From positions 1 to 64,000 of the forward strand of contig CABYSJ010000005.1 in assembly GCA_902521615.1 (NCBI GenBank): 64,000 bases of DNA, in the 5' to 3' direction. This stretch comes from an uncultured Pelagibacteraceae bacterium. GTDB lineage: Bacteria > Pseudomonadota > Alphaproteobacteria > Pelagibacterales > Pelagibacteraceae. The first letter of the stretch is position 1, and every line of letters begins with the position of its first letter. Under the pieces are notes generated by a model, which made no database searches, had not been told where the DNA came from, and saw nothing but the letters and a program-made list of their open reading frames with translations. Below, piece after piece: positions 12,285 through 42,986 of this stretch. The translations under genes were made by a program, and so were the position numbers.

Positions 12285-12752
12285 ATGAGTGATCTCAACA
12301 AAGCACCAAATGATTTTTTTGAAAATTGGAATAAAATCCAATCAATGTCATATAAAAATGTCATTGAGCTACTTGTGAAAAGAAGTAGCGAAAAAAAGAT
12401 ATTAGCTTTAATTCAATTTGAATTAGATCAATTTTCAGAAAATGTTCAAAAGTATTTAGCTATTTCTGAAAAAAGTTCTTTCTATCAAGAAATATCTAAT
12501 CTTTTTAGAGATTCAACCTGGTGGTCAACAGCTACAGTAACAGATGCTTGTAAATATTATTTAAACTGTGCAAGAAATAATATTTCTTATTTTGAAAACT
12601 ATGTAGAGGCAGATAGTGATTTGTCTCAAAATCAAAAAAATGAGATATTTGCCTTGTATCAATTGTGTACTTTATTTGTTTCTTGGAATGCTATTAAAGA
12701 CAAACAGATCAGAGAAATTATAGATATTAGAAAAAGTTTATTTTTTAGATAA
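12285..12752 (+). CDS. Small helical protein of unknown function
   Basis: Not recognised. 155 residues without signal peptide or membrane segment, and mostly predicted helix by composition (long Lys/Glu/Gln/Leu stretches such as SEKKILALIQFELDQFSENV). Notable aromatic patch FRDSTWWSTATVTDACKYYL near residue 75. The general size and helical make-up resemble phasin-like or scaffold proteins, but no motif supports this. It is followed 9 bases later by the TPR-glycosyltransferase gene and is divergent from the FG-GAP gene, with a 99-base AT-rich gap that probably holds both promoters. Confidence 0.55.
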   Translation: MSDLNKAPNDFFENWNKIQSMSYKNVIELLVKRSSEKKILALIQFELDQFSENVQKYLAISEKSSFYQEISNLFRDSTWWSTATVTDACKYYLNCARNNISYFENYVEADSDLSQNQKNEIFALYQLCTLFVSWNAIKDKQIREIIDIRKSLFFR

Positions 12753-12761
12753 AATATTTAT

Positions 12762-14555
12762 ATGAATAAAAAGGATATAAATCCACCTGAAACCGAGATT
12801 AAAAATCTAATTCGAGAGTATCAAGAAAGAAGATTTGATAACGCAATAAAATTAGCTTTATCAATTACCCAAAGATTTCCTACCAATCAATTTTCTTGGA
12901 AAGTGCTTGGTGGATTGTTAGGTATAACTGGCAAACATCATGAAGCAATTAAGGCAAATCAAAAAGCTTTAGATTTGTTACCAAATGATAATGAAGTCCA
13001 CAATAACATGGGTAATTCTTACAGAGCTTTAGGTAAATTAGATTATGCCTATAAAAGCTATAAAGAGGCAATTAGATATAAAATTAACTTTACCCAAGCA
13101 TATAACAATTTAGCTATAACTCTTCAAGCACTAGGTAAATTTGATGAAGCTATAATAAATTATAAAAAAGCAATTGAATTGGAACCTAACTACCCTCAAA
13201 CTCATAATAACCTTGGTATAACTCAAAAAGAAATTGGTAAATTAGATGATGCTGTAAGAAGCTATAAAAAAGCAATCGAATTAAAACCTGACTATTCAGA
13301 AGCTTTCAATAACTTAGGTTTAACCCTTAGAGAACTTAATAAATTGATTCAGTCCGAGGAAAGTTACAAAAAAGCGATAGAGTTAAACCCTGAACAAGCA
13401 GAATATCACAATAATTTAGGTGTAACCTTAAATGAACTTAGTAAATTAGATGAGTCCGAAAAAAGTTATAATAAAGCAATAAAGCTAAACCCTGAATATA
13501 TTGAGTGTTATACTAACTTAGGAATCACTCTCCAAGAATTAGGCAAATTAGATGAGTCCGAAGAAAGTTATAAAAAAGCTATTGAATTAAAACCTAACTA
13601 TGCAGAAGCTAATTATTGTTTGTCTCTTTTATATAACTTAAGGGGAGATCTAAAAAAAGGATTTAAATTATATGAATGGAGATATCATGAAAAAAAAAAA
13701 ATTACACGACCACCAAATAAAAAATTTTTTTGGGATGGAGAAAAATCTATCAAAAATAAAAAAATTTTAGTTTATGGAGAACAAGGTTTTGGTGATACTA
13801 TTCAGTTTTTTAGATACTTAAGCATACTTCAAAATATGGGTGCACATGTAATATTCAAAGTTAAATCAAACTTACATCATCTTTTTAATGCCCCAAATGA
13901 TAAAATACAAATTATAGATAATTTTCCAGAAACAAATAAAATTGACTTTGAATCACCTTTAATGAGCCTTCCATATCTTTTAAAAACCGATCTAAATTCA
14001 ATTCCATCTTCAGTACCATATCTAAAAGCAGATATTAATAAAATAGATGAATGGGGTAAAAAATTAAATTCTAAAAAATTTAAAATTGGTATTTGTTGGC
14101 AAGGTAGTAAAACAAAAGTCGATAAAGGTAGATCTTTTCCATTATCATTATTTAAAGATATCTCTAAAATTCCTAATCTTGAACTAATCAGTCTTTACAA
14201 GGGAGACGAAGAAAACCAAATTTTAAATATTGATTTTGATTTGAATAGTTTGGGCAATAATTTTGATAATGAAAAGCATGCATTCATTGATACAGCAGCA
14301 ATAATGATGCATTGTGATTTAATTATCACTTCTGACACTGCAATAGCACATTTAGCAGGTGCTCTTGGACGACCAGTTTGGGTTGCATTAAAACATATTC
14401 CTGAATGGAGGTGGATGCTAAATCGTTCTGATAGCCCTTGGTATCCAACTATGAATTTATATCGCCAAAATAAACTTAATGATTGGGGTTATGTATTTGA
14501 TTTAATGAAAAAAGACTTGAAAAAAATTGTGAGTAATAAAAGTAATCAAATATAA
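12762..14555 (+). CDS. TPR protein with C-terminal GT9-like glycosyltransferase domain
   Basis: 597 residues in two parts. Residues about 15-290 hold seven or eight 34-residue tetratricopeptide repeats with a repeated core such as LGKLDESEESYKKAIELKP and YNNLGITL, giving an elongated protein-binding solenoid. Residues about 300-590 resemble the heptosyltransferase (GT9) fold: ILVYGEQGFGDTIQFFRYL near 345, FKIGICWQGSKTKVDKGRSF near 440, then CDLIITSDTAIAHLAGALGRPVW near 525, a typical nucleotide-sugar-binding end. Such fusions are usually cytosolic enzymes modifying proteins or surface glycans, but acceptor and donor are unknown. The adjacent similar repeats are liable to recombination. Confidence 0.85.
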   Translation: MNKKDINPPETEIKNLIREYQERRFDNAIKLALSITQRFPTNQFSWKVLGGLLGITGKHHEAIKANQKALDLLPNDNEVHNNMGNSYRALGKLDYAYKSYKEAIRYKINFTQAYNNLAITLQALGKFDEAIINYKKAIELEPNYPQTHNNLGITQKEIGKLDDAVRSYKKAIELKPDYSEAFNNLGLTLRELNKLIQSEESYKKAIELNPEQAEYHNNLGVTLNELSKLDESEKSYNKAIKLNPEYIECYTNLGITLQELGKLDESEESYKKAIELKPNYAEANYCLSLLYNLRGDLKKGFKLYEWRYHEKKKITRPPNKKFFWDGEKSIKNKKILVYGEQGFGDTIQFFRYLSILQNMGAHVIFKVKSNLHHLFNAPNDKIQIIDNFPETNKIDFESPLMSLPYLLKTDLNSIPSSVPYLKADINKIDEWGKKLNSKKFKIGICWQGSKTKVDKGRSFPLSLFKDISKIPNLELISLYKGDEENQILNIDFDLNSLGNNFDNEKHAFIDTAAIMMHCDLIITSDTAIAHLAGALGRPVWVALKHIPEWRWMLNRSDSPWYPTMNLYRQNKLNDWGYVFDLMKKDLKKIVSNKSNQI

Positions 14556-14561
14556 ATAAAA

Positions 14562-14599
14562 AACTCGATGTCAAACTCGAAACAAAAGAGATAAAACAA
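14562..14599 (+). repeat. 38-bp box, copy A left (variable part CGA)
   Basis: Two AACT-based direct repeats start 12 bases apart (AACTCGA at 14562 and 14574). GAGATAAAACAA follows, starting 14 bases after the second AACT. The same spacing holds in all five boxes of the segment. This one lies 13 bases before the ATG of the degenerate small gene copy A. Confidence 0.8.
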
Positions 14600-14612
14600 T
14601 GATCTGGATAGT

Positions 14613-14681
14613 ATGAATAAAGAAAACGCAAGTAAACTCTGGAAAATTATTCAGGAAGCTGGCGATTATTTGGGGTGCTAG
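14613..14681 (+). pseudogene. Truncated copy A of the small ORF6C-like gene
   Basis: Encodes MNKENASKLWKIIQEAGDYL then GC and a TAG stop after 22 residues. The first 20 residues differ from the intact gene at 17943 at one position only (I for M), and the DNA differs at about four of 61 bases, so this is a recent copy. After the stop the sequence still aligns loosely with the intact gene (TGGGACAAC against TGGGTCAAT), but no open frame continues. It is a broken duplicate. Confidence 0.75.
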
Positions 14682-14690
14682 TGGGACAAC

Positions 14691-14720
14691 CTACCTCACA
14701 CTACCTCACACGACTTCACA
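14691..14720 (+). repeat. Three-fold 10-bp tandem repeat in copy A
   Basis: CTACCTCACA, CTACCTCACA and CGACTTCACA follow one another directly, one DNA turn apart, within the 98-base stretch identical to copy B. A 6-bp inverted repeat CTAGTG/CACTAG brackets the tract. It may be a relic of decay of the small gene or a binding site. Nothing in the sequence decides this. Confidence 0.7.
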
Positions 14721-14788
14721 CTAGTTATGCGACAAATTAAAATTCGATTGAAAAAAAATTGCTTAAAGACTCGTAAATTTAACAAGTA

Positions 14789-14826
14789 AACTAGAACTAG
14801 AACTAGAACTTTTTTAGATAAATCAA
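14789..14826 (+). repeat. 38-bp box, copy A right (variable part AGAAC)
   Basis: AACTAG is repeated three times plus AACT, so AACTAGAAC occurs at 14789 and again at 14801. TAGATAAATCAA ends the box, with T in place of the usual first G. The variable letters AGAAC equal those of the box at 16050 on the other side of the hydrolase gene. Confidence 0.75.
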
Positions 14827-14881
14827 ATAGCTGATTTTCAAGCAAATAGACACATGTTTCAGAATTTGATAATATTATATT

Positions 14882-15988
14882 ATGAAAAAAATCTTTGTTA
14901 TTACATTATTAATTTTTATCTCAAGTACGGTTCTTAACGCAGAAACAATTAAACCAAAAAAAACACCACTTAAAAAATTATCCAAACAACTAGGCAATGG
15001 AGAATTAATCAAGATTAATTCATATCAAACTTCTGATTATAAAGGAATTTTGGAGGGCTGGTATAAAGAGAGTCCAATAATAGTTGATGCTCTTATTACT
15101 TATCCAGAGGGAGAAGGTCCATTTCCTTTATTATTAATCGTTCATAGTAGTGGTGGTGCTGATGAATTTACTGCAAATTGGCTAGAGTTTATGAGAGATC
15201 AACAAAAACCTCTGTTAGATATGGGGATAGCGACAATGTATTTAGATAATTTTTCTGCGAGAGGTGCAAAACATACTTATACAGATCAATCAAAAGCATC
15301 TTTATGGTCTACTTATATAGATGTGTTTATGGCATTAGATTATCTCAGTAAGGATCCGAAAATAAATATTAAAAAAGTAGGTGTCTCTGGTTATTCAAGG
15401 GGAGGAAATCTTTCAATAATGGCTGCAGAAAAAAGATTGAGAGATATATTGGTTAGCAAAGATCTTTATTTTGCTGCGTCTCAACCAAGATCTGCAGAAT
15501 GTGGAATTTCTGGAATGTTTAGAAATCCAACTCCAGTTAAAGAAACTAAAATTTGGTATGTACATGGTTTAGCTGAGGATTATACCTTACCAGGTCCATG
15601 TGTAGACCTAATGGAAAAAATGCAAGCTAAAGGTGCTGATATTGAAATAGATTTAAGAGAGGGATGGTATCATTTATTTACCGGAAATTATGAGCCAGAA
15701 ATTGAAAAAAGAACTCAATATTTTTGGAAGTGTCCTAATTTTTACACAGAGGATGATGGGAATCCCAATAAAGAGTTTTTTGATTTAATTTTAAAAAATA
15801 CAAAAATAAAAAGTTTGGATGAATTTAATGAGTTATCACGTAAAAATCCAAGAAAAGCTTTTAAAACCATGTTTAAGGGTCTTAAAAAAGAAAAATGTAT
15901 TGGAAAAGGTGTTACTGAAGGGGGTAACCATGGAAAAACTTTTATGCCAGAGTATTTAGCTTTTTGGAAAGAAAATTTATTAAATTAA
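14882..15988 (+). CDS. Secreted alpha/beta hydrolase, dienelactone-hydrolase-like
   Basis: 368 residues with a signal peptide (MKKIFVITLLIFISSTVLNA), so periplasmic. The hydrolase triad can be placed: nucleophile Ser172 in GVSGYSRGG, acid Asp233 in HGLAEDYTL and base His264 in GWYHLFTG. HSSGG near residue 89 is the likely oxyanion region. This resembles the dienelactone hydrolase group acting on esters or lactones, but the substrate is unknown. A C-terminal extension with three Cys follows the catalytic domain. The gene is alone between two boxes with the same variable letters (14789-14826 and 16050-16087), so it looks like the cargo of the repeat system. Confidence 0.82.
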   Translation: MKKIFVITLLIFISSTVLNAETIKPKKTPLKKLSKQLGNGELIKINSYQTSDYKGILEGWYKESPIIVDALITYPEGEGPFPLLLIVHSSGGADEFTANWLEFMRDQQKPLLDMGIATMYLDNFSARGAKHTYTDQSKASLWSTYIDVFMALDYLSKDPKINIKKVGVSGYSRGGNLSIMAAEKRLRDILVSKDLYFAASQPRSAECGISGMFRNPTPVKETKIWYVHGLAEDYTLPGPCVDLMEKMQAKGADIEIDLREGWYHLFTGNYEPEIEKRTQYFWKCPNFYTEDDGNPNKEFFDLILKNTKIKSLDEFNELSRKNPRKAFKTMFKGLKKEKCIGKGVTEGGNHGKTFMPEYLAFWKENLLN

Positions 15989-16005
15989 TTTAATAAATTA
16001 AAGAG

Positions 16006-16077
16006 ATGAAAAAACTTTTAAGTATTGTGGTTATAGGATTTTGTAGGATAACTAGAACCATAACTAGAACTTTTTGA
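16006..16077 (+). pseudogene. Signal-peptide start of a secreted-protein gene, cut by the repeat element
   Basis: ATG at 16006 encodes MKKLLSIVVIGF, a typical start of an exported protein, but the frame then runs into the box (RITRTITRT) and stops at 16077 after 23 residues. The change from signal-peptide-like to repeat-encoded sequence falls where homology with copy C begins (about 16038). The simplest reading is a gene start left over when the element or its cargo was inserted or rearranged. The piece is short, so confidence is moderate to low. Confidence 0.4.
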
Positions 16078-16087
16078 GATAAAACAA
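16050..16087 (+). repeat. 38-bp box, copy B left (variable part AGAAC)
   Basis: AACTAGAAC at 16050 and again at 16062, then GAGATAAAACAA starting at 16076. The spacing is identical to the other boxes. Its variable letters match the box at 14789-14826, the other border of the hydrolase module, and it sits 13 bases before the copy B small-gene ATG. Confidence 0.8.
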
Positions 16088-16100
16088 AGTTTGAAGTAGT

Positions 16101-16169
16101 ATGACGCCAGAAAACTCGCAGAAACTCTGGAAAATTATTCAGGAAGCTGGCGATTATTTGGGGTGCTAG
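16101..16169 (+). pseudogene. Truncated copy B of the small ORF6C-like gene
   Basis: Encodes MTPENSQKLWKIIQEAGDYL, then GC and a TAG stop, the same break as in copy A. The first codons differ from copies A and C (TP for NK and SQ for AS), whereas the following 98 bases are identical to copy A. The identical break in A and B means one copy was already broken before it was duplicated. Confidence 0.72.
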
Positions 16170-16178
16170 TGGGACAAC

Positions 16179-16208
16179 CTACCTCACACTACCTCACACG
16201 ACTTCACA
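16179..16208 (+). repeat. Three-fold 10-bp tandem repeat in copy B
   Basis: Same three units as in copy A (CTACCTCACA twice, then CGACTTCACA), directly adjacent. It lies within the 98 bases identical to copy A. Confidence 0.7.
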
Positions 16209-16276
16209 CTAGTTATGCGGATAATTAAAATTTGATTGAAAATAATTCGCATAAAGACTCATCAATTTAAGCAAAA

Positions 16277-16314
16277 AACTATACCCCAAACTATACCAAG
16301 TTGAGATAAATCAA
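16277..16314 (+). repeat. 38-bp box, copy B right (variable part ATACC)
   Basis: AACTATACC at 16277 and 16289, then GAGATAAATCAA from 16303. The variable letters ATACC match the box at 17892-17929, the other border of the Lrp/DapA-family module. Confidence 0.8.
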
Positions 16315-16329
16315 CTTAATATAATATCT

Positions 16330-16782
16330 TTATTCTACTCGTGAATATTCTGATTTAACTCTACGTAAAGGTATGGAGGTTTCAACTGAAGAAACACCAT
16401 CTATTACAGTAAGTTTTTTTGTTAAAAAATCTTCAAATTCCTCAACGTCTTTAACCGCAATTCTAATTAAGTAATCCTTAGCACCTGTCATTAACCAACA
16501 TTCAACAACTTCAGGAAAATTTAAAATTTTTTTCTCAAATTTATCAAAATTTTTTGATTGTTGTTTTTCTAAGCTTATAAATATAAATGCAGGAAATTTG
16601 TAACCAAGTGAAGTTTCATCAATATTTATTGAATAATTTTTAATTATATTATTTTCTTCTAATTGGTTTATTCTTCTTGCGGTAGGAGCAATACTTAAAT
16701 TTATTTTCTCACTAATATTTTGAAGTGTAGTTTTGCTGTTATTTTTAAGTATTTTTACAATCTTTTTATCAACTTCATCCAT
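16330..16782 (-). CDS. Lrp/AsnC-family transcriptional regulator
   Basis: 150 residues. An N-terminal winged helix-turn-helix (MDEVDKKIVKILKNNSKTTL, then ISEKINLSIAPTARRINQLE, residues 1-50) is followed by the RAM/AsnC effector domain (EVVECWLMTGAKDYLIRIAV near residue 95, with the G-x-x-D-Y pattern of amino-acid-binding members). It is divergent from the DapA-family gene 117 bases away, so it probably controls that gene, and itself, in response to an amino acid or related ligand. Both genes lie inside the module bracketed by ATACC-type boxes. A specific ligand cannot be read from the sequence. Confidence 0.9.
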   Translation of the reverse strand: MDEVDKKIVKILKNNSKTTLQNISEKINLSIAPTARRINQLEENNIIKNYSINIDETSLGYKFPAFIFISLEKQQSKNFDKFEKKILNFPEVVECWLMTGAKDYLIRIAVKDVEEFEDFLTKKLTVIDGVSSVETSIPLRRVKSEYSRVE

Positions 16783-16805
16783 ATTTTTAATAAATTTTAT
16801 TAATA

Positions 16806-16855
16806 TTTATAAAATATCTTATAAAATTTACTAATATTCAACTATAAATTAGTAA
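16806..16855. promoter_or_regulatory. Two adjacent inverted repeats between divergent Lrp-type and DapA-family genes
   Basis: TTTATAA/TTATAAA (16806-16825) and TTACTAAT/ATTAGTAA (16828-16855) are perfect inverted repeats lying side by side in the 117-base divergent gap. Lrp-type regulators bind such dyads in divergent promoters, so these are candidate operators. The AT-rich background makes chance dyads common. Confidence 0.4.
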
Positions 16856-16899
16856 TAATAGAGAAAATTTATTTTTAATTTCATGTAATTAATAATTAT

Positions 16900-17868
16900 A
16901 TGAATAAATCTAAATCATTTGATCCAATCTGGGTTCCAATTATTTCTCAATATCAAAACACAAAAAATTTAGAGCTAGATGAAAAGCTTATTCAAAAACA
17001 CATCAATTGGTTAGACCCACATGTAAAACAATTCTTGGTATGCGGAACTACAGGAGATGGATGGAATTTAACTGATAAATTAATTTTTAATTGGTTAGAT
17101 ATATTAAATGATAACTCTTTAATCAAAAAAGATAACAAAATATTATTTGGAGCATTTGGAAAAACAACAGAAGATGTTCTAAGACGTGCAGATATCATAG
17201 AAAGATATATAGATAAAAATGGATCATCTGCTGGTTTTTTTGGATTAACTTTGTGTGCTCCCGTTGACGAAAACATCAAACAAGAAGGAATTATTTCACA
17301 TTTTAAGCTTATCATTGAAAATACACATTTACCAATTTCTATCTATCAATTACCTCAAGTAGTAAAATGTAAAATTGAACCTGAAACATTAAAAATATTA
17401 AAAGATAATTTTCAAGATAGAATTCAATTATTTAAGGATACTAGTGGTGAAGATGATGTTGTGAATTCTAGAATTAATTTTAATGATTTAATATTTTTAA
17501 GAGGAGCAGAAGAAAATTATTTTGATCATTTAAAACCTAATGGGAAATATGATGGATTTTTATTAAGCTCAGCAAATTGTTTTGGTAAAATTTTAAGAGA
17601 AATTTATAATAATGTTGCAAAGGGTAATTTTAAAGATGCAGAAAAAATGTCTGAGGAACTAAGCGATATAATTAGAATTTCATTCTCAGAAGGTCAAAAA
17701 CTAGATTTTGGAAACCCTTTTTCTAATGTAAATAAAGCATTTGCTCATGTCTTGATTAATAAAGATAATCTTAGTTGCAAAACATGTTTTGACAGAAATA
17801 TACCTAATGAATTTTTAAATGATATGTTTCTATTGCTATCTAAATATAACTTAAGAAAATCCTTATAG
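16900..17868 (+). CDS. DapA/NanA-family aldolase-type lyase or synthase
   Basis: 322-residue TIM-barrel protein of the dihydrodipicolinate synthase superfamily. The pyruvate-binding loop is GTTGDGW at 49-55, the conserved Tyr149 lies in ISIYQLPQVV and the Schiff-base Lys179 in IQLFKDTSG. It lacks the close DapA signatures and is a little longer, so a role in catabolism of a keto-acid, hydroxyproline or sugar acid is as likely as lysine synthesis. Divergent pairing with an Lrp/AsnC regulator supports regulated catabolism. It is cargo of the second box-bracketed module. No partner dehydrogenase or transporter is included. Confidence 0.85.
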   Translation: MNKSKSFDPIWVPIISQYQNTKNLELDEKLIQKHINWLDPHVKQFLVCGTTGDGWNLTDKLIFNWLDILNDNSLIKKDNKILFGAFGKTTEDVLRRADIIERYIDKNGSSAGFFGLTLCAPVDENIKQEGIISHFKLIIENTHLPISIYQLPQVVKCKIEPETLKILKDNFQDRIQLFKDTSGEDDVVNSRINFNDLIFLRGAEENYFDHLKPNGKYDGFLLSSANCFGKILREIYNNVAKGNFKDAEKMSEELSDIIRISFSEGQKLDFGNPFSNVNKAFAHVLINKDNLSCKTCFDRNIPNEFLNDMFLLLSKYNLRKSL

Positions 17869-17891
17869 GAATTTGTAAAATTTTGTGGGAT

Positions 17892-17929
17892 AACTATACC
17901 CAGAACTATACCAGATTGAGATAAATCAA
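17892..17929 (+). repeat. 38-bp box, copy C left (variable part ATACC)
   Basis: AACTATACC at 17892 and 17904, then GAGATAAATCAA from 17918, followed 13 bases later by the ATG of the intact small gene. The variable letters match the box at 16277-16314. The upstream context ATTTTGTGGGATA is shared with the copy B left box. Confidence 0.8.
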
Positions 17930-17942
17930 GGTTTGAAGTAGT

Positions 17943-18170
17943 ATGAATAAAGAAAACGCAAGTAAACTGTGGAAAATGATACAGGAAGCTGGTGATTATT
18001 TGGTGGGTCAATTACCTGACCACCCAAATCATCCTAAAGGAAGAAACCCATATGCACATGTTGCTATTTGTGTGAAAAGTAAATTCAATGCAAGCTACAA
18101 AGATATTCCAGATGAGAAATATGAGGATGTAATTAAATACATTGAATTTTTAAAACAAAATCCAAATTAA
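17943..18170 (+). CDS. Small ORF6C-like protein (intact member of the repeat family)
   Basis: 75 residues, no signal peptide. The C-terminal half (GRNPYAHVAICVKSKFNASY, then KDIPDEKYEDVIKYIEFLK) resembles the ORF6C/antirepressor C-terminal domain of phage regulatory proteins, a small DNA- or protein-binding unit. This is inference from the pattern (K-F-x-x-S-Y-K-D-I-P, then a helix). The N-terminus is MNKENASKLWKMIQEAGDYL. Two broken 5' copies of the same gene lie at 14613 and 16101. The upstream 38-bp box could be its operator. It ends directly against the convergent amidinotransferase gene, with no base between them. Confidence 0.65.
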   Translation: MNKENASKLWKMIQEAGDYLVGQLPDHPNHPKGRNPYAHVAICVKSKFNASYKDIPDEKYEDVIKYIEFLKQNPN

Positions 18171-42793: not shown

Positions 42794-42950
42794 ATTAACT
42801 CTTCTGTGCCCCCTCTGTCTTGGTGCCTGAGAGATTTGCTCCTTCGGCGAGAATAATTCTCTTTCCAGAGTTAATATGTACGGTCCTTTTGCCTGAGAGT
42901 TTCCGGGGTGGTTGCTCCTTCGGCGCTACAAAAGTAGTCTCTCCCGTATA
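42791..42950 (-). promoter_or_regulatory. Tandem glycine riboswitch before gcvT
   Basis: Read on the (-) strand, two glycine aptamers follow one another, each with GCCGAAGGAGCAA and CTCTCAGGCA. Aptamer 1 lies at about 42949-42880 with closing stem UACGG/CCGUA. Aptamer 2 lies at about 42878-42791. The bases 42867-42878 and 42791-42802 are perfectly complementary over 12 bp (AGAGTTAATATG on each strand). This closes aptamer 2 and includes the gcvT AUG, so the start codon would be hidden when the helix forms. No rho-independent terminator was seen between aptamer 2 and gcvT, which suggests control at translation. Confidence 0.93.
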
Positions 42951-42986
42951 TAAATTTATAGCACATTTAAAATGTTTATGTGAAAT

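What the first reader, a model, noticed from the sequence alone, without database searches (positions are those of the whole stretch)
14562..17929. Five 38-bp boxes with fixed spacing and cargo-matched variable letters bracket two accessory modules
Seen in sequence: boxes at 14562, 14789, 16050, 16277 and 17892 all have AACT-NN-A half-repeats starting exactly 12 bases apart, then (G/T)AGATAAA(A/T)CAA starting exactly 14 bases after the second AACT. Within each box the two halves carry the same variable letters (CGA, AGAAC, AGAAC, ATACC, ATACC). The two boxes on either side of the hydrolase gene share AGAAC, and the two on either side of the Lrp/DapA-family pair share ATACC. Inference: each module has its own matched border, as in site-specific or recombination-mediated cassette exchange, with the small ORF6C-like gene as the repeating partner. 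No integrase lies within the window.
Basis: partly seen in the sequence, partly recalled or inferred. Interest (0 to 1): 0.85.

Follow-up and report, generated by a model that had tools for sequence, protein, structure and literature searches.

The report
Matched-arm gene cassettes in SAR11
In the ocean bacteria called SAR11, this stretch carries two small gene cassettes stacked at the start of one short gene, each bracketed by its own matched pair of DNA boxes that are likely docking sites for the integrase of a related, apparently circular 9-kb element, which would let cells trade accessory and phage-defence genes.

Summary
In detail: five exact boxes, far above chance. The window and fetched relatives gave 72 cassettes in 61 loci; of 67 with both ends readable, 61 carry matching box letters (at most 1 of 6 different) and 6 do not. 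Insert-free sites exist, and each of the window's cassettes occurs singly in another genome (97% and 99.6% identical).

The boxes are not the exchange points. A 20-bp core inside codons 14-20 of a selected 75-aa gene is. Each insertion restores the gene and leaves a truncated 5' copy. Box, core, spacer, box in one piece is the attP of ~9-kb elements with a tyrosine integrase and primase, though their two boxes match less tightly. One box overlaps the integrase's first codons in 112 of 120 homologues; the predicted integrase has a P4-like arm-type domain, and box-coding residues covary most with it.

Best reading: arm-type sites, two per attP; the cassettes are integrase-less, CIME-like elements accreted in tandem and probably moved in trans. 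Cargo is varied and rich in restriction-modification genes. Binding and mobility are untested. New variant of a known kind.

The parts
12285..12752 (+). 155-aa gene; native left neighbour of the target gene in genomes without an insert
   Evidence: in L060-L063, L066 and L070 its end directly precedes the 75-aa gene
12762..14555 (+). TPR / glycosyltransferase-9 protein, starting where the native gene's ATG would be; possibly cargo of an older insertion whose left end is lost (inference)
14562..14599 (+). arm box, letters CGA; in the P position but with a P'-type sequence, translates KLDVKLETKEIKQ
14613..14671 (+). 5'-truncated copy of the 75-aa gene (left junction of cassette 1)
14652..14671 (+). 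20-bp shared core CAGGAAGCTGGCGATTATTT, inferred crossover zone
14672..14788 (+). conserved spacer with 10-bp CTCACAC-type repeats, between core and P' box
14789..14826 (+). P' arm box, letters AGAAC (cassette 1)
14882..15988 (+). cargo 1: DLH/S9-type hydrolase, 368 aa
16032..16049 (+). TATAGGAT-type direct repeat directly left of the P box
16050..16087 (+). P arm box, letters AGAAC (cassette 1)
16101..16159 (+). 5'-truncated copy with core at 16140-16159 (junction of cassettes 1 and 2)
16160..16276 (+). conserved spacer
16277..16314 (+). P' arm box, letters ATACC (cassette 2), translates KLYPKLYQVEINQ
16330..16782 (-). cargo 2a: Lrp/AsnC-family regulator, 150 aa
16900..17868 (+). cargo 2b: dihydrodipicolinate-synthase-family protein, 322 aa
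17892..17929 (+). P arm box, letters ATACC (cassette 2)
17943..18170 (+). target: intact 75-aa gene, core at 17982-18001

Best explanation
The boxes are likely arm-type integrase-binding sites flanking the crossover core of two small integrase-less insertions that would have been added one after the other at the 5' end of a 75-codon gene by the integrase of a related, apparently circular ~9-kb element. In the circular form each element would carry one contiguous attachment site: P box, core copied from codons 1-20 of the gene, ~120-bp spacer, P' box; this order is seen intact in four 9-kb elements. Recombination between this core and the same core in the host gene would place the P' box at the left end of the insert (after a truncated gene copy) and the P box at the right end (in front of a restored gene). 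So the two boxes that match across a cargo are read as the two arms of one attP, and boxes either side of one core in an array mostly differ because they belong to different cassettes. Shown: architecture, matched letters, insert-free and single-cassette genomes, attP-bearing elements with integrase, a restored gene under purifying selection. Inferred: that the integrase binds the boxes, that cassettes move in trans, and that they were inserted successively.
Against: In the four 9-kb elements the two boxes of one attP differ by 0, 1, 2 and 2 of 6 letters, looser than in most cassettes. No integrase of this family in the own genome (its one PF00589 protein, 325 aa, was not identified further) and few in chromosomes: 3 of 197 and 7 of 399, mostly distant. 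No cassette circle seen: the att pattern in viral contigs found only three 9-kb elements. 6 of 67 cassettes have mismatched ends. The four elements lack the TATAGGAT repeat that 35 of 55 cassettes carry. The left edge of the core is not sharp, as the gene start is conserved anyway. 12 of 49 rule-empty gene copies keep a box-like tail and 3 a box, so not every 'empty' site is pristine. Covariation may partly reflect linkage; the partial Mantel correlation is small (r 0.11, p 0.02). No binding, excision or transfer was tested.
Confidence: 0.76

Rival explanations
1. Homologous-recombination cassette exchange: the repeated gene 5' end, spacer and boxes act only as homology for RecA, with no integrase needed.
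For: Six mismatched cassettes, fused cassettes (C52_L209 holds cargo 1 plus another cassette's gene) and a zero-cargo one-box site (L096) look like homologous deletion products.
Against: Does not explain why boxes match across cargo but mostly differ across the core, or why the same arrangement is the attP of integrase-bearing elements.
Confidence: 0.11
2. Dead relics: each cassette is a decayed 9-kb-type element that lost its integrase and no longer moves; matching letters are fossils.
For: No integrase in 72 cassettes by tblastn with five integrases; P' boxes of cassettes still translate like integrase N-termini, 45 of 55 12-bp-period boxes sharing the residue pair of a listed integrase, without a chance control.
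Against: The same cassettes occur in different combinations in other genomes, one at 99.6% identity; arms kept matched; 152 cargo proteins fall in 126 clusters.
Confidence: 0.2
3. Operators: the boxes are binding sites of a repressor that regulates the 75-aa gene; pairing is incidental.
For: A parsed box upstream of a full gene sits at a fixed distance from its start.
Against: 34 of 49 gene copies without an insert have nothing box-like at that place, and P' boxes face cargo, not the gene.
Confidence: 0.04

Closest known systems
CIMEs and tandem accretion (ICESt1-related elements, Streptococcus; PMC5704250, passages seen)
   Same: Elements with attL and attR but no recombinase, stacked in tandem at one gene end by site-specific recombination.
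   Different: Here the 5' end of a short protein gene, cassettes of 0.2-6.8 kb, arm boxes in many letter types, relatives are 9-kb elements with a primase and no conjugation family found; SAR11.
P4-like integrases and their attP arm sites (structures 3jtz, 3rmp; titles seen)
   Same: Predicted arm-type domain fold; repeated sites on both sides of a core.
   Different: Arm box overlaps the integrase's first codons; Pfam finds only the catalytic domain; cassettes keep the arms without the gene.
Dehalococcoides ssrA islands (PMC3146451, abstract and one section read)
   Same: Tandem islands at one target, 20-bp repeat, 16 of 31 with the integration module.
   Different: tmRNA target and serine recombinase; no matched arm pairs in the part I read.
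Tycheposons (PMC10872708, passages)
   Same: Cargo islands with a tyrosine recombinase in ocean bacteria.
   Different: tRNA borders, 4-200 kb.
Integron cassettes (recalled)
   Same: Arrays of exchangeable one- to few-gene cassettes.
   Different: Here the core lies in a host gene and flanking box pairs are present.

Membership tests
CIME | flanked by attL and attR sites | tested here: met
   truncated core plus P' at left, P plus restored gene at right; insert-free partner for 14 of 55 loci
CIME | lacks integration genes | tested here: met
   tblastn of five integrases against 72 cassettes: none
CIME | derived by decay of a conjugative or mobilizable element | tested here: inconclusive
   related 9-kb elements have integrase, primase, RusA-like; no conjugation family among nine proteins of L141 scanned
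CIME | mobilized by an accreted active element | not testable with these tools
   needs culture
tyrosine recombinase (9-kb element integrase) | catalytic domain | tested here: met
P4-like integrase | arm-type binding domain fold | tested here: met
P4-like integrase | Pfam match to an arm-binding domain | tested here: not met
   only PF00589 in the integrases scanned, at E<=0.01 and E<=0.1
tycheposon | tRNA gene at border | tested here: not met
   no tRNA in the window
ssrA island | tmRNA target | tested here: not met
   target is a protein gene; no tmRNA in window
integron | IntI and foldable attC | not tested
   own PF00589 protein not classified
phage satellite (PICI/PICMI) | packaging by a helper phage | not testable with these tools
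   three of the 9-kb elements are IMG/VR contigs; no capsid family among nine proteins of L141
ORF6C | Pfam domain in the 75-aa protein | tested here: not met
   no Pfam match at E<=5

The most novel reading that the evidence does not exclude
SAR11 runs an integron-like gene-trading system whose recombinase is not in the chromosome: cassettes consist of an attachment module plus cargo and ride on integrases of 9-kb satellite-like circles. Arm-box letters act as compatibility groups, coevolved with the integrase arm domain, and cassettes switch group by exchanging the whole attP while circular. One conserved short gene is the shared dock, from both of its ends.
Probability: 0.48. Interest if true: 0.88.

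Novelty: new variant of a known kind. Interest (0 to 1): 0.76.

Why it matters
SAR11 are among the most abundant cells in the ocean, with small streamlined genomes, and how they gain and lose accessory and phage-defence genes is poorly known (recalled). Here is a concrete, repeated site with cassettes, insert-free sites, a candidate integrase family and a recognition code that can be read from sequence. It makes trans-mobilization and arm-site specificity testable, and gives a way to find accessory and defence genes by their boxes.

Tried and rejected
ORF6C identity of the small gene: no Pfam support; its three-helix model has no PDB match at E<=0.001. Relatives of the small protein or the L059 integrase in 50,697 phage records: none. 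Rfam: only a glycine riboswitch elsewhere in the window. Charybdis elements (PMC12324425, abstract and outline only) were considered for the 9-kb circles and dropped: 4.6 kb, linked to archaea. Cargo-specific letters: rejected. Literature: nothing on this system in the listings of searches for Pelagibacter/integrase/genomic island/satellite, SAR11/integrase/phage satellite (no paper), SAR11/prophage/attachment site/integrase, SAR11/anti-phage defense/genomic island (no paper), a four-term search, SAR11/tyrosine recombinase and a five-term search. These cover openly licensed PubMed Central papers only and I saw listings, not the papers, for nearly all. Rows dropped before counts: false cores in L071 and L097; five cassettes with an unreadable box (C16, C24, C39, C52, C65; C24 may not be a cassette); two of the 71 att sites (G313, G284) were not fetched. 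C29_L185 looked incomplete to the rule and by eye is a mismatch; it is counted against.
Full report
What was checked. The five boxes are exact and unique in the window: 5 matches at up to 3 mismatches against a mean of 0.04 in shuffles, and the only zero-mismatch matches in the 1.2-Mb own genome. Two 239-nt stretches (14588-14826 and 16076-16314) are 83% identical repeats. They contain a 5'-truncated copy of the 75-aa gene that stands complete at 17943-18170.

How widespread. The box pattern (at most 1 mismatch) is in 13 of 197 genomes of the family, with no match for the reversed control pattern. The 75-aa protein is in 80 of 197, often with extra truncated copies of its first 20-23 residues, and has 5628 homologues in the large protein set. 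The core-plus-spacer pattern of the left junction is in 56 of 399 genus genomes, 71 sites, controls zero, and in 114 stretches of named genomes; the 80 listed are all titled Pelagibacter, Pelagibacteraceae or Pelagibacterales. That is my ground for 'SAR11'.

Anatomy. I fetched 80 regions around the gene or its remnants and 53 around left junctions. Neither selection used the boxes. Occupied loci read: native upstream, truncated gene 5' end, spacer, box, cargo, box, full gene. With the window, 72 core-to-core units were cut out in 61 loci: 52 single, 7 double, 2 triple; the leftmost core has no box by rule in 50 of 61; lengths run 227-6847 bp, median 2203. Left and right copies agree at 86-100% of cassettes per position from -3 to +16 around GAAGC, then fall sharply to the right; to the left the gene start stays similar except at -4, -7 and -16 (0.74, 0.67, 0.43). 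I place the exchange in this 20-bp stretch, CAGGAAGCTGGCGATTATTT, codons 14-20.

Empty sites. By rule 49 gene copies have neither box nor truncated copy. On rechecking, 34 have nothing box-like at the expected place, 12 keep a box-like tail and 3 (L093, L095, L102) have a box that the rule missed. Both flanks of an occupied locus were found around such a copy for 15 of 55 loci; one partner (L093, for L087) has a box, so 14 remain, 11 of them with a box-free partner. Examples: L188 (insert 1488 bp) and L060, 94% over 749 and 699 bp; L220 (5222 bp) and L061. For L114 the upstream match is only 75 bp.

The window's two cassettes. Cassette 1 (hydrolase, AGAAC) stands singly in G279, 1488 bp, 96.7% identical, at a site whose flanks match those of genomes with the 155-aa gene as left neighbour. 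Cassette 2 (Lrp/DHDPS-like, ATACC) stands singly in G298, 1842 bp, 99.6% identical. The window thus holds two independent units in tandem. The leftmost box (14562) has a P'-type sequence, and the TPR gene before it starts where the native gene would start; I read this as remains of an older insertion, without proof.

The matching rule. In 50 cassettes parsed by rule, 41 have identical and 48 nearly identical letters (6 letters after the second ACT); no shuffle of 20,000 came near. With repeated box pairs removed, 37 of 39 against a shuffled maximum of 15. Reading the 22 others by eye gave 13 matches, 4 mismatches and 5 unreadable. In all, 61 of 67 match. The 6 exceptions (C19_L177, C60_L218, C11_L110, C29_L185, C43_L200, C58_L216) may be fused neighbours; C52_L209 and C60_L218 carry cargo 1 plus a further gene. 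Boxes either side of one chromosomal core differ by at least 2 letters in 16 of 18. Against a strict rule, the two boxes of the attP in the four 9-kb elements differ by 0, 1, 2 and 2 letters; there the P' box is also coding. Letters are not set by cargo: C30_L187 and C47_L204 share a 2709-bp unit (97%) but have CGACAC and CGAAAC at both ends; C29_L185 and C61_L219 are 97% identical, one mismatched, one matched; AGATAC brackets several cargos.

The autonomous relative. Searches of viral contigs with the small gene and then with an integrase gave L059, L140 and L141; L139 is a genome contig of 8864 bases, the length of AG-447-P19 NODE_13. All are 8.9-9.1 kb; three have terminal repeats of 29, 98 and 81 bp, so circularity is likely, not proved. 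Each has box, core, spacer, box in one piece at 227-228 bp spacing, the second box overlapping the first codons of the integrase. They encode an AEP-TOTE/DUF5906 primase (L059, L141) and, in L141, a RusA-like protein; no capsid family among nine L141 proteins. L141's P box equals that of the L064 cassette. G348 holds such an element in the chromosome next to this gene, with a broken integrase at the contig end; related elements sit elsewhere in G310, G357 and G508.

The target. pN/pS is 0.17-0.20 in each of three segments of 114 gene copies, so the gene is kept functional. Its function is unknown.

Judgement. Architecture and matching are shown; binding, excision and transfer in trans are inferred. 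By sequence it works like CIME accretion with P4-like arm sites; membership in the CIME class is met for att sites and lack of integrase, open for origin and mobility.

Noticed in passing
L077:7795-7911, L075:12088-12210, L057:10001-10108: 3' remnants of the same gene (residues 35/37/40-75); in L057 next to a 557-aa integrase 28-30% identical to the 5'-end one, in L077 after a 269-aa gene. A second system seems to use the gene's 3' end.
   Followed up: partly
window 16032-16049 and right ends of other cassettes: TATAGGAT-TT-TATAGGAT-type direct repeats directly left of the P box in 35 of 55 cassettes, absent from the 45 bases left of the P box in the four 9-kb elements; possible excisionase or host-factor sites.
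   Followed up: partly
window 14672-14788, 16160-16276: Spacer between core and P' box holds about three 10-bp repeats (TACCTCACAC type) whose letters vary between loci; role unknown.
   Followed up: no
L096:13774-14001: Zero-cargo site: native truncated copy, spacer, one box, full gene; cores 227 bp apart.
   Followed up: partly
L240:9113-16798, L241:3657-10175, L242:3061-10369: Related ~7-8-kb integrase/primase-type elements at other chromosomal places, a wider SAR11 element family.
   Followed up: partly
L057:5416-8166: The presumed prophage carries a ResIII/Mrr 916-aa protein with the same domains as cassette cargo in L178.
   Followed up: no
L072, L084, L090, L091, L113, L127 and others, upstream of the gene: Gene copies without insert that keep only a box tail (12 of 49), perhaps scars of lost insertions.
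   Followed up: partly
window 42871-42956 (-): Glycine riboswitch, 70.5 bits.
   Followed up: no
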